Positions 17,727-30,250 of a stretch of DNA of 37,491 nt are shown in pieces. The first letter of the stretch is position 1. The number at the start of each line of letters is the position of its first letter. Below the pieces are notes generated by a model. It saw only the letters and a program-made list of their open reading frames with translations, was not told where the DNA came from and did no database searches. Location of the stretch: NCBI GenBank assembly GCA_945900945.1, contig CAMDKL010000046.1:1-37491 (forward strand), read 5' to 3'. The stretch is from Pirellula staleyi DSM 6068. Its GTDB lineage: Bacteria > Planctomycetota > Planctomycetia > Pirellulales > Pirellulaceae. Made by a program: the position numbers and the translations under genes.

Positions 17727-17898
17727 GTATCGTTTTTTTTTGCCGAGAAAACAACATTCTATAATCTGTCGCTACGCCTCGAAACGTATTTTTAGAATCA
17801 CCGTCGTGCTTCCTTGGCCAAGTTGCATGCGTGGTTCGCAAGTTGGTCTTCGCACGCTACAATCGGCAGACCCTGTTTGGTATTCTAAGTCGCGGGAT

Positions 17899-17926
17899 AG
17901 GCTGCCAGCCTTTTTATACCCCACAA
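17899..17926 (+). repeat. Solo copy of the 28-bp end repeat of the 29.15-kb element
   Basis: The sequence AGGCTGCCAGCC followed by TTTTTATACCCCACAA matches the left terminal repeat of the element at 29152-29419 with a single mismatch. No inverted partner is present nearby. It may be a solo end, or evidence that this 28-mer is a dispersed repeat in its own right. It lies 64 bp upstream of hemQ. Confidence 0.8.
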
Positions 17927-17990
17927 GACGTTCCATATCGCTCCCCTGCCAGCAGCCTTTCCAACGTAACTCTATTCGATCGCTTTTTCC

Positions 17991-27304: not shown

Positions 27305-27421
27305 CACGTAGGTCAGCCTGTACTCAGGCTGACACAACACGTAGGTCAGCCTGTCCTCAGGCTGACACAACACTTTCTAACCCAAGGTTCATGTCCGGCT
27401 GAGGACAGCCGGATCTACGTG
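27305..27421. repeat. Three REP-like palindromes inside the suf operon (family 1)
   Basis: Copies are at 27305-27333 (loop TACT instead of TCCT), 27338-27366 and 27393-27421. The first two have arms GTCAGCCTG/CAGGCTGAC, the third GTCCGGCTG/CAGCCGGAT with a T change at the arm end. The first two share orientation; the third is inverted. The third ends inside the possible GTG start of the desulfurase frame. Hairpins in this place could act on mRNA stability or attenuate transcription, but nothing in the sequence shows it. Confidence 0.9.
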
Positions 27422-27433
27422 AATCGCACTAAA

Positions 27434-29149
27434 ATGGACACTGAAATCAATTATCCCGACCTTTCGGAACTGCAAGAGGAACTGAACGATTTGGAAACGT
27501 CCGAAGAGCGAATCCAGTTTCTGATCGAACTGGGGCAATCGCTTCCTCCGTTCCCTGAAGAGTTTTGCACCGAAGAATTTAGGGTGATGGGTTGTCAAAG
27601 TATGGTATGGATCGTGCCTAACTGGGGCGGCGAGGTGTACCACTTTTTGGCGTCAAGCGATGCGCCGATGGTCCGAGGCTTGGTTGCCGTTTTGATGTCT
27701 GCTTATTCAGGAAAATCTCCTGGTGAGATCACTGCATTTCCAATCGAAAAGGTGCTCGATAGTCTGCATTTAAAATCGTTTCTTTCGCCGCTTCGAAGCA
27801 ACGGATTGCATTCGATGATCAAACGGATTCGTCTTTACGCTGAATCCATGCAAGAATTATCGAGTCCGACATCTCGCGACGACGCGTCGGCAAATGCCCC
27901 TCCCTTCCAAGACCATGGGCCGCTTCTGGCCAGAATGGAACCGATCCGGGCCGACTTTCCGATCCTCCAGCGGCAGAATCGCGATGGCGTCTCGATCGCT
28001 TATTTGGATAATGCGGCATCATCGCAACGGCCCCAATCGGTTATCGATACGCTGACTGGCGTTTTTTCAGAACACTACGCAAACGTTCATCGTTCGGGGC
28101 ATGAATGGGCAGTTCAGACGACAGAACGGGTCGAAGCTAGCCGAGAGTCAGTGCGACGGTTTATCAATGCGGCCAAAACAGAAGAGGTGATTTTTACCTC
28201 CGGTGCGACAGCCTCGGTTAATCTTATCGCTCATGCCTGGGGCGATGCCAACGTCGGTCGCGGCGACGAGATCCTGCTTACTGAGATGGAACACCATTCC
28301 AACATTGTTCCATGGCAGCAGCTTTGCGAGCGTAGGGGCTGTAAGATACGTTGGGTGCCGATTCGAACCGACTACCAATTGGATATCGATCGATTCGAAG
28401 GGTTGCTTTCACCACAGACAAAGCTTGTATCGTTTACTGCCGTTTCAAATGTTTTAGGAACAATCAATCCGGTGAAGCAGCTTGTTCAGTTAGCGCATCG
28501 AGTCGGCGCTGTGGTCGTCGTCGATGCGGCCCAAGCAACGCCTCATGGTGCGATTAACGTTCGGAACTGGGATGCCGACTTCGTAGTCTTCAGTGGTCAC
28601 AAAATGCTCGCATCGACAGGGGTTGGTGTTTGCTATGGAAAGCAATCGATATTCGAGAACATGCCCGCTTGGCTAGGTGGCGGCAGCATGATCAAGTCGG
28701 TAACGTTCGATGGTTTTTCGTTAGCGGATTTGCCCCATAAATTCGAAGCCGGTACTCCTGCGATTGCAGAGATCATAACGATGAAACCTGCAATCGAATA
28801 TCTAGAAGCAATTGGTCACGATCGGTTGATGGAACACGAGCGTTTGCTGACAAGGCAAGCGATGGACGGGCTCAGTAAGATCGCTGGCATTCGCATCTTT
28901 TCACCCCCGCTCGAATCCAAGAGCGGTGTGATTTCGTTTTCGGTCGATGGCATACACGGCGAAGCGATTGCAAGTGTATTGGATGGACGCGGTGTTGCGA
29001 TTCGCGTTGGGCATCATTGTGCGATGCCGCTGCATAGTCGGCTGGGAGTCTCGGTTACCTGCCGAGCGAGTTTTTACTTGTACAACACGCCGGATGAGGT
29101 AAGTCGATTGGTGGATTCTGTCGAGCACGCCGTAAGGATTTTGAAGTAG
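27434..29149 (+). CDS. sufS: SufE-SufS fusion: cysteine desulfurase with built-in sulfur acceptor
   Basis: A 571-residue fusion. Residues 1-140 are SufE: EERIQFLIELGQSLPPFPEE and GCQSMVW with the sulfur-accepting Cys54. A short linker (about 143-168) leads to SufS: AYLDNAASSQRP at about 189-200, HRSGHEWA at 219, the PLP lysine Lys390 in FSGHKMLASTG, and catalytic Cys529 in VGHHCAMP. Both partners therefore keep their reactive cysteines, so sulfur could pass from Cys529 to Cys54 within or between chains. I chose the ATG at 27434 over the GTG at 27419, because the GTG lies in a REP repeat and the MDTEINYPDL start fits SufE. It is last in the suf operon; in most bacteria sufS and sufE are separate genes. 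Confidence 0.94.
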   Translation: MDTEINYPDLSELQEELNDLETSEERIQFLIELGQSLPPFPEEFCTEEFRVMGCQSMVWIVPNWGGEVYHFLASSDAPMVRGLVAVLMSAYSGKSPGEITAFPIEKVLDSLHLKSFLSPLRSNGLHSMIKRIRLYAESMQELSSPTSRDDASANAPPFQDHGPLLARMEPIRADFPILQRQNRDGVSIAYLDNAASSQRPQSVIDTLTGVFSEHYANVHRSGHEWAVQTTERVEASRESVRRFINAAKTEEVIFTSGATASVNLIAHAWGDANVGRGDEILLTEMEHHSNIVPWQQLCERRGCKIRWVPIRTDYQLDIDRFEGLLSPQTKLVSFTAVSNVLGTINPVKQLVQLAHRVGAVVVVDAAQATPHGAINVRNWDADFVVFSGHKMLASTGVGVCYGKQSIFENMPAWLGGGSMIKSVTFDGFSLADLPHKFEAGTPAIAEIITMKPAIEYLEAIGHDRLMEHERLLTRQAMDGLSKIAGIRIFSPPLESKSGVISFSVDGIHGEAIASVLDGRGVAIRVGHHCAMPLHSRLGVSVTCRASFYLYNTPDEVSRLVDSVEHAVRILK

Positions 29150-29151
29150 TG

Positions 29152-29419
29152 CAGGCTGCTAGCCTTTTTATACCCCACAACTTAATAATTCGACTCCTGC
29201 GAGCTTGTCTCGCAGGTGAGAGAGTTTGGTAACCAGATCGGGCTTACCAATAATCCCCTCAAACTTGCTGGCCGCCGGAGGCGGCCAGCAAGTTTGAAAA
29301 TAGGGGGTATGCACGCAGTAGGGTAATATGCTGGTTACCAAACTTTGCTCTCCTGCCAAGCAAGCTGGCAGGAGAGCAGTATCAAACGATTTGTGGGGTA
29401 AAAAAGGGCTGGCAGCCTG
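29152..29419. mobile_element. Cloverleaf-like element with terminal inverted repeats (MITE-like, unassigned)
   Basis: The ends 29153-29180 and 29391-29418 are 28-bp inverted repeats matching at 25 of 28 positions (AGGCTGC.AGCC... ending CCCCACAA). Inside are four stems: A, 29196-29203 with 29209-29216 (8 bp, CCTGCGAG); B, 29223-29236 with 29331-29344 (14 bp perfect); C, 29259-29276 with 29280-29297 (18 bp perfect, 3-base loop), inside B; and D, 29347-29358 with 29366-29377 (12 bp perfect). The outer arms close a junction of three branches. No reading frame of note lies in it. The left end starts 3 bases after the desulfurase stop and the right end lies 5 bases before the uracil glycosylase stop, so it fills the convergent gap. 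No target duplication is visible. Confidence 0.8.
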
Positions 29420-29424
29420 TCCTA

Positions 29425-30165
29425 CTATTTGTTCCAGATACCGGCATCTTGCAATTGCTTGGTGGCTTGCTCGGCCCAGCCTCGATTGGCGGCAGGCGAA
29501 GCGGGGCTCGGGTGCAAGATCTTACAAACCGTCGTTGATTGGAGCTTTGCATGGTTGTTGCAGACTCGCTTGAGACAGTCTTGGGCATAGGCTCCAATGC
29601 CGACCGCGAACTCGGGCTTGAGCAACAAAAGGGACTTCTGCAAATGCTGGTCGCACTTGGCATCCAGGTCTTTCCTCTCGGACGCAGGTAGTTTGTCCGG
29701 AGTGACGTTGCGAGCACCGTCGTCCATGAATACAAGCGGGCAATAATTGGAAACGAAATGCTCTGCAAAGAAATCCTTTGCGATTGGATAGCGCGATGAA
29801 AAAAGCCCCCACAATCGTTTGCCAGAGACTTCACTACGAGTACAAGCAAAGCCTTCGATGGGTCTTTTCGGATGTTCGCGGTCAGGTTTGCCGATCTTCG
29901 TCTCAATCCTGAGGTAGTTTCGGACGGCATCGATCTCGCCGAACGGAACGCCGGTTTGAGCCATCCCCCAAGGGCCAGGATTCATTCCAAGAAGAAAGAC
30001 CCGGCAGAAAGAGCCGGCGTACAGGCTCAAGTATTTTTCTTGAGCGGACCAAGCATAGTGGAGCGGGTTATAAACCCAAGAAACCGGTGCTGAGAATTGG
30101 AGTAGATCCAGGTCGGATCGAAGTTGCTTTGCGGCTGCAATGAAACCTTGCGTAGTCTTGTTCAT
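29425..30165 (-). CDS. SMUG1-like uracil-DNA glycosylase
   Basis: A 246-residue base-excision enzyme of UDG family 3. GMNPGPWGMAQTGVPFGE is the SMUG1 water-binding and uracil-pocket motif, where the Asn in GMNPG activates the water. The second motif HPSPASPAANRGW is near the C-terminus and carries the intercalating loop. FVSNYCPLVFMDDGARNVTP and EFAVGIGAYAQ also match the family. Length is normal for SMUG1. I took the ATG at 30165 (MNKTTQGFIAA); the frame runs 17 residues further upstream with no family likeness. It is convergent with the desulfurase, separated only by the cloverleaf element. Confidence 0.92.
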   Translation of the reverse strand: MNKTTQGFIAAAKQLRSDLDLLQFSAPVSWVYNPLHYAWSAQEKYLSLYAGSFCRVFLLGMNPGPWGMAQTGVPFGEIDAVRNYLRIETKIGKPDREHPKRPIEGFACTRSEVSGKRLWGLFSSRYPIAKDFFAEHFVSNYCPLVFMDDGARNVTPDKLPASERKDLDAKCDQHLQKSLLLLKPEFAVGIGAYAQDCLKRVCNNHAKLQSTTVCKILHPSPASPAANRGWAEQATKQLQDAGIWNK

Positions 30166-30250
30166 GAAACCATTGTAGAAAAACAAAAACACCCTGCCAA
30201 TTGGCACGGTGTTCATTGTGTCTTTTGAGAGTGCTCTTTTTTAGGAGCAA

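What the first reader, a model, noticed from the sequence alone, without database searches (positions are those of the whole stretch)
29152..29419. A cloverleaf-shaped element with terminal inverted repeats fills a convergent gap
Seen directly: 28-bp ends match as inverted repeats at 25 of 28 positions. Inside them are stem A (8 bp), stem B (14 bp perfect, arms 95 bp apart), stem C nested inside B (18 bp perfect with a 3-base loop) and stem D (12 bp perfect). The nested order A, B(C), D gives a three-branched fold closed by the ends. Stems A and D share CTCCTGC/GCAGG. It starts 3 bases past one stop codon and ends 5 bases before the next, and its end repeat recurs alone at 17899. No coding frame. 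It could be a non-autonomous transposon, a structured RNA or a bidirectional terminator; the nested architecture does not match a simple MITE or REP.
Basis: seen in the sequence. Interest (0 to 1): 0.72.

Follow-up and report, generated by a model that had tools for sequence, protein, structure and literature searches.

The report
Hairpin-rich MITE nested in REP repeats
The 'cloverleaf' is an old copy of a small mobile DNA element that cannot move on its own: its ends match a Tn5-like insertion sequence in the same genome, it lies in a palindromic REP repeat between two genes, and its paired stems have been kept across several planctomycete genera in a way that points to DNA hairpins rather than to an RNA.

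Summary
The stems are there and the 268-bp fold is far stronger than shuffled sequence (z about -15). It is not single-copy: 21 places in this genome, itself included, carry it or pieces of it, and relatives of about 245 bp with the same layout occur in other genera of the family. Its ends equal those of an intact IS4/Tn5-type insertion sequence on contig C63, which has a perfect 9-bp target duplication; element copy C42 has one too. Stems A-D covary strongly across 33 copies, but G-T cells (23) are no commoner than A-C cells (30) of 1863, so DNA-level pairing fits better than a structured RNA. The element is a nearly full-length inverted duplication. In Neorhodopirellula pilleata 18 of 23 copies read show at least one arm of a larger REP-dimer repeat and seem to spread with it. 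Best reading: a foldback MITE with Tn5-like ends in a REP landing site. New family of a known kind, with unusual nesting and covariation.

The parts
   Evidence: sequence; REPs with this core occur alone and as head-to-head dimers in this genome
29164..29180 (+). left terminal inverted repeat of the element, 17 bases equal to the IS end
29196..29216 (+). stem-loop A, 8 bp
29223..29236 (+). left arm of stem B, 14 bp
29259..29297 (+). stem-loop C, 18 bp with 3-nt loop
   Evidence: 15 of the 26 pairs modelled for this helix across copies show changes on both sides
29331..29344 (+). right arm of stem B
29346..29378 (+). stem-loop D, 13 bp; inverted counterpart of A
29391..29407 (-). right terminal inverted repeat, 2 of 17 bases changed
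   Evidence: compared by eye
29408..29425 (-). right half of a GTAG-tagged REP, inverted relative to the left half
29164..29407 (+). the whole non-autonomous element, 244 bp
   Evidence: boundaries inferred from the IS on C63 and copy C42 with perfect 9-bp duplications
17895..17953 (-). fragment of a second copy: right end plus part of the D region
27419..29149 (+). left neighbour: SufE-SufS fusion, its TAG stop inside the GTAG tag
29425..30216 (-). right neighbour: uracil-DNA glycosylase superfamily protein, its stop sharing one base with the GTAG tag

Best explanation
It is a degenerate copy of a non-autonomous foldback transposon (MITE), 244 bp (29164-29407), with ends of the IS4 family, Tn5/IS50 type. 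Shown: its left end equals those of the intact insertion sequence on contig C63 over 17 bases and its right end differs by 2 of 17; family members occur at many sites and in several genera; the IS and one element copy (C42) carry perfect 9-bp duplications; many flanks are REP palindromes. Inferred: the C63 transposase, or an ancestor, cut the element out and joined it into the centre of a REP palindrome, which offers a GCTNNNAGC nonamer of the kind a Tn5-like enzyme favours (the Tn5 consensus is recalled; passages of PMC1525189 say that IS50 prefers a 9-bp target and that Tn5 sites are often palindromic). Shown: the inside is an imperfect inverted duplication of a module made of a hairpin and an arm, so it can fold as a cloverleaf or as one long hairpin. 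Inferred: its arms are kept matched at the DNA level, by template switching between arms during replication or by selection for a DNA hairpin, not as a transcript. At this locus it lies between convergent genes and may add transcription stops as a by-product.
For: Copies in own genome: 21 places aligned, some with shared internal deletions that define subfamilies, a sign of repeated spread. Ends: both ends of the C63 IS read the 19-base end without mismatch; its 489-aa ORF matches PF14706, PF02281 and PF01609 and NCBIfam NF033590. 9-bp duplication GCTGGCAGC at the IS (by eye) and ACCAACTGC at C42, 9 of 9, in a site that is no REP by eye. Covariation: 93.3% of 1863 cells paired, 25 of 58 pairs with changes on both sides, score 0.231 against 0.077 in shuffles (0 of 500) and at most 0.046 when slid. 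DNA rather than RNA: 1716 Watson-Crick, 23 G-T, 30 A-C, 94 other mismatches.
Against: The window copy has no clean duplication: its flanking nonamers agree 7 of 9 as direct and 8 of 9 as inverted repeats. Over 41 copies, inverted agreement beats direct in 22, direct beats inverted in 15, 4 tie; perfect direct 4, perfect inverted 7; flanks paired across different copies give 2.4% and 9.6% perfect, so both kinds are above control but few. Without four rows whose ends were misplaced it is 21, 13 and 3 of 37. In G266 and G309 the transposases found have other ends, and in five more genomes no relative of the transposase was found at E 0.001. No orthologous empty site was found for this locus. RNAalifold on its own recovers A and C but not B or D. 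The copies are related, so the covariation counts are not independent events.
Confidence: 0.86

Rival explanations
1. The unit that spreads, at least in some species, is the larger composite: a REP-dimer repeat (arms near TTAGCATCG) that carries the hairpin element as its inside, moved by another enzyme, for example a RAYT-type Y1 transposase or the enzyme of the outer repeat. The IS4-type ends would then be relics of how the inside was acquired. This does not exclude the best explanation for the origin of the element.
For: In N. pilleata 24 of 29 short-arm half-sites of the outer repeat hold the element and 5 do not, of which 2 are intact empty REP dimers; the element's orientation to that arm is 20 to 4 (sorted by eye), two-sided binomial p 0.0015. 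Of 23 N. pilleata copies read, 13 have the arm motif on both sides, 5 on one and 5 on none, against 1 of 46 background pieces. Transposases found there have other ends.
Against: In the window's genome a matching IS exists; C58 and C10 sit in one REP of a still visible dimer; C42 has a perfect 9-bp duplication. The window copy shows no such arms. No search for a RAYT or an outer-repeat transposase was made.
Confidence: 0.35
2. A structured regulatory RNA conserved for its cloverleaf.
For: Strong fold and strong covariation across genera.
Against: G-T cells are as rare as A-C cells (23 and 30 of 1863), whereas an RNA tolerates G-U on its own strand; dispersed copies in mixed gene contexts; losses of stem C or of the D apex shared by several copies; no Rfam match at gathering scores.
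Confidence: 0.05
3. A bidirectional transcription terminator for sufS and the UDG-family gene, domesticated at this site.
For: 5 terminator-like sites in the 801 bases scanned against 1.0 +/- 1.1 in shuffles; 2 of the 5 lie in the element or its REP half: 29153-29165 on the + strand and 29300-29256 on the - strand. Copy C126 sits 4 bases from both neighbouring ORFs in the same convergent way.
Against: 7 of 19 classified copies lie in convergent gaps, 7 in tandem and 5 in divergent ones, with a crude ORF caller and 2 of 21 unclassified; stem C has no good T-tract.
Confidence: 0.2

Closest known systems
IS4 family, Tn5/IS50 type (Tnp_DNA_bind PF14706, Dimer_Tnp_Tn5 PF02281)
   Same: ends shared with a resident IS of this type; 9-bp duplication at that IS and at copy C42; GC-edged palindromic target
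   Different: the element has no transposase; its inside shows no likeness to the IS beyond the ends by eye
ISRm22 of Sinorhizobium meliloti (passages of PMC1525189 seen)
   Same: IS4-family element inserted at the axis of REP palindromes; some copies with mismatched duplications, ascribed there to recombination between copies
   Different: an autonomous IS with 6-bp duplications; the word MITE does not occur in that paper's main text
GTAG-tagged REPs and REP dimers (passages of PMC3733652 seen)
   Same: GTAG/GTGG-tagged hairpins as singletons and head-to-head dimers, reported also from Planctomycetes; structured spacers between dimer partners known
   Different: here a 244-bp element with transposon ends lies in the REP
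Bacterial MITEs such as NEMIS, ERIC and RUP (named in a passage of PMC3733652; other properties recalled)
   Same: short, non-coding, inverted ends, strong fold, many dispersed copies
   Different: cloverleaf inside made of an inverted pair of hairpin modules, with stems that covary across genera; REP-centred sites

Membership tests
bacterial MITE | short, no gene, inverted ends | tested here: met
   244 bp; one mechanical ORF of 63 aa lies inside on the minus strand and others only overlap it; ends
bacterial MITE | many dispersed copies | tested here: met
   21 places in own genome, fragments included; 40 scored places in G266
bacterial MITE | ends shared with an autonomous IS in the same genome | tested here: met
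   C63 IS in the window's genome; not met in G266 and G309, where the transposases found have other ends
bacterial MITE | target-site duplication | tested here: inconclusive
   perfect 9 bp in 4 of 41 copies, C42 among them, and at the IS; 7 of 9 at the window copy; inverted REP flanks are as frequent
IS4 family, Tn5/IS50 type | Tn5-like DDE transposase that acts on these ends | tested here: inconclusive
   transposase identified by Pfam and NCBIfam; action on the element cannot be tested here
GTAG REP (flanking sequence) | GTAG-type tag plus short hairpin, repeated in the genome | tested here: met
   58 matches to GTRGNAYAGGCTNNNAGCCT with up to 1 mismatch against 1 for the reversed control; some of the 58 are flanks of the element or of the IS
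structured RNA family (Rfam) | match to a curated covariance model | tested here: not met
   0 matches at gathering scores in the window
structured RNA | G-U tolerated on the transcribed strand | tested here: not met
   23 G-T against 30 A-C cells
REPIN / RAYT-mobilised element | cognate Y1 transposase and single-strand mobility | not tested
   no search for Y1 transposases was made

The most novel reading that the evidence does not exclude
A concentric palindromic mobile element: an outer REP-dimer repeat, inside it Tn5-like ends, inside those an inverted pair of hairpin modules that also occur alone, and a hairpin at the centre. It spreads as a whole in some species, and its arms are rewritten in step by template switching, so that DNA palindromes evolve with Watson-Crick-only covariation that mimics a conserved RNA.
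Probability: 0.3. Interest if true: 0.62.

Novelty: new variant of a known kind. Interest (0 to 1): 0.45.

Why it matters
The element shows strong compensatory change without G-U tolerance. Covariation is often taken as proof of an RNA; here it occurs in a dispersed DNA palindrome, so the ratio of G-T to A-C is a cheap control for such claims. The finding also extends REP targeting by IS4-type elements to planctomycetes and to a non-autonomous passenger, and it gives a family across genera on which template-switch repair of palindromes could be measured.

Tried and rejected
Rfam at gathering thresholds: nothing. Orthologous empty site: the sufS C-terminus was found in 26 of 27 genus genomes, own included; I read the downstream stretch of 13 of the 25 best loci of relatives. 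By eye they carry other sequence after sufS; in one (L120, G022) a GTGG-REP dimer follows the stop. So I have no empty site for this locus. The window element as query in 27 genus genomes gave, besides its own genome, short matches in two. The better query L021 in 241 family genomes gave a match in 20, full-length or nearly so in five besides its own, with at most 3 candidates scored per genome. A G266 copy as query in 396 order genomes gave matches in 11, no full-length copy in another family, with 2 candidates scored per genome in the rows listed; these caps mean that copies may have been missed. First pattern in genome contigs: none. I considered that the whole 28-bp repeat is transposon end: rejected, because the duplications at the IS and at C42 place the boundary at CTTTTTATACC. 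I considered single-REP insertion for all copies: rejected for those with two inverted REP heads. The automatic MITE/noMITE label was too strict, so I re-sorted its 29 printed segments by eye. Of 55 loci given to the end finder, 14 had no pair of ends and were left out; 4 of the remaining 41 (L027, L177, L250, L252) had an end misplaced, and recounts without them. Searches used 33 of the copies fetched (the gene context, used 21 places of the own genome instead): 9 of the window's genome, 4 of G266, 11 of G308, 7 of G309, 1 each of G098 and G009. The paired columns were set by hand from one G266 copy, which favours the structure over its slid versions. Of the 40 places listed in G266 I fetched and read 23. 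Paper searches for a prior description: (the last two returned no paper); none of the titles and abstract starts listed describes such an element.

Full report
What is there. The stems described are in the sequence and are not chance. Small corrections: D is 13 bp, the arms of B are 94 nt apart, and the repeat at 17899 is part of a 59-bp match. As RNA the lowest-energy form is one long hairpin, since A and D are mirror counterparts; the DNA parameters give the branched form. Left half against reverse-complemented right half of the window element gives 88 identical of 143 aligned columns, score 20 against at most -47 in 200 single-base shuffles.

Copies in the genome. A search of the 6.47-Mb assembly gave 43 matches, many of them the two strands of one palindrome. 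I aligned 21 places, the window element and fragments included. Some deletions are shared: three copies (C9a, C21, C9b) lack stem C, and three others (C58, C87, C283) lack 12 bases of the D apex. Shared deletions suggest that altered copies were copied on.

The matching insertion sequence. On contig C63 two such ends enclose about 1.57 kb with a 489-aa gene. Its product matches the Tn5-type DNA-binding and dimerisation domains (PF14706, PF02281) and the DDE domain PF01609, and the NCBIfam model NF033590, IS4 family transposase. Both ends read CTTTTTATACCCCACAAGT without mismatch, and GCTGGCAGC stands directly outside both. Copy C42 has ACCAACTGC on both sides. Close relatives of the transposase are in two other genomes of the genus (L143, 79% identity over 489 residues; L144, 76% over residues 1-293), with ends that differ by one base.

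The landing sites. The outside halves are GTAG- or GTGG-tagged REPs, which also occur alone and as head-to-head dimers in this genome. Insertion of IS4-family and other elements into REPs is known: nine ISRm22 copies in REPs of S. meliloti (passages of PMC1525189). In the window one stop codon lies inside a GTAG tag and the other shares a base with one, which explains why the element seems to fill the gap so exactly. Duplications are often not clean: 4 of 41 copies are perfect as direct and 7 of 41 as inverted repeats; flanks paired across copies give 2.4% and 9.6%. Inverted agreement is higher than direct in 22 of 41, or in 21 of 37 without misplaced ends. REP dimers provide inverted heads, and PMC1525189 ascribes mismatched repeats to recombination between copies; either could act here.

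Relatives elsewhere. In 241 genomes of the family, full-length or nearly full-length relatives at 66-69% identity appear in five genomes besides the own one: G266, G308, G309, G098, G009. With a G266 copy as query, 40 of 99 first-look candidates in G266 were scored, and 40 places were listed at 92-100% identity; G308 and G309 gave 68 and 25 matches, both strands counted. Solo A-type and D-type hairpins, some in tandem, occur more widely.

Covariation and what it means. On 33 copies, 58 pairs were counted: 93.3% of 1863 cells paired, 25 pairs and 141 cells changed on both sides, 0 of 500 shuffles as high in the score. Helix B is the weakest at 86.4%; A, C and D are at 95% or more. RNAalifold by itself finds A and C only. 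If an RNA of this strand were selected, G-U would be tolerated and A-C would not; the counts are 23 and 30. I infer that the pairing matters, or is restored, in DNA. The copies are related, so the counts are not independent events.

Nesting. In G266 a larger palindromic repeat surrounds many copies: of 23 read, 13 have its arm motif on both sides, 5 on one, 5 on none; 1 of 46 background pieces has it. Of 29 sites that match its short arm, 24 hold the element (at least 4 of them truncated or rearranged in the stretch printed) and 5 do not, of which L288 and L299 are intact empty REP dimers; the D side faces the short arm in 20 and the A side in 4 (p 0.0015). This suggests that the composite spreads as a unit there. 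The transposases found in G266 and G309 have other ends, and no relative of the transposase was found in G308, G098, G009, G271 and G307.

Gene context. By a crude ORF caller, 7 of 19 classified copies lie between convergent genes, 7 in tandem and 5 between divergent genes; 2 of 21 were unclassified. Termination at the window locus is possible, but convergent placement is not a rule of the family.

Verdict. A foldback MITE with Tn5-like ends, degenerate at this site, in a REP landing site. The new parts are the family itself across genera, the covariation without wobble pairs, and the nesting in a REP-dimer repeat.

Noticed in passing
G000:C63:29331-30898 (L040 1032-2599): Intact IS4/Tn5-type insertion sequence whose stop codon lies inside its own terminal repeat; the only full-length copy of this transposase found in the genome.
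   Followed up: yes
L190 380-700, L191 300-560, L192 340-600: Solo D-type (L190) or A-type (L191, L192) hairpin modules, each with an arm like that of stem B, in tandem arrays with about 63-80-bp spacing in other genomes of the family; origin and role unknown.
   Followed up: partly
L092, L098, L085 (G000) and L288, L299 (G266): Outer repeat of about 115-120 bp: REP dimer with longer palindromic arms ending near TTAGCATCG, shared between genera; its own transposase is unknown.
   Followed up: partly
G002:C169, G002:C87, G008:C26, G007:C9, G115 (several): Fragments that match only the last 28-45 residues or so of the transposase; the one at G002:C169 has a matching end beside it. They may be another class of short derivative that keeps the 3' end of the gene.
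   Followed up: no
L148, L152, L153, L154: More distant Tn5-like insertion sequences of the family also seem to sit in short palindromes, some with GTAG tags (by eye).
   Followed up: no
window 27419-29149: SufE and SufS fused in one 576-aa protein.
   Followed up: no
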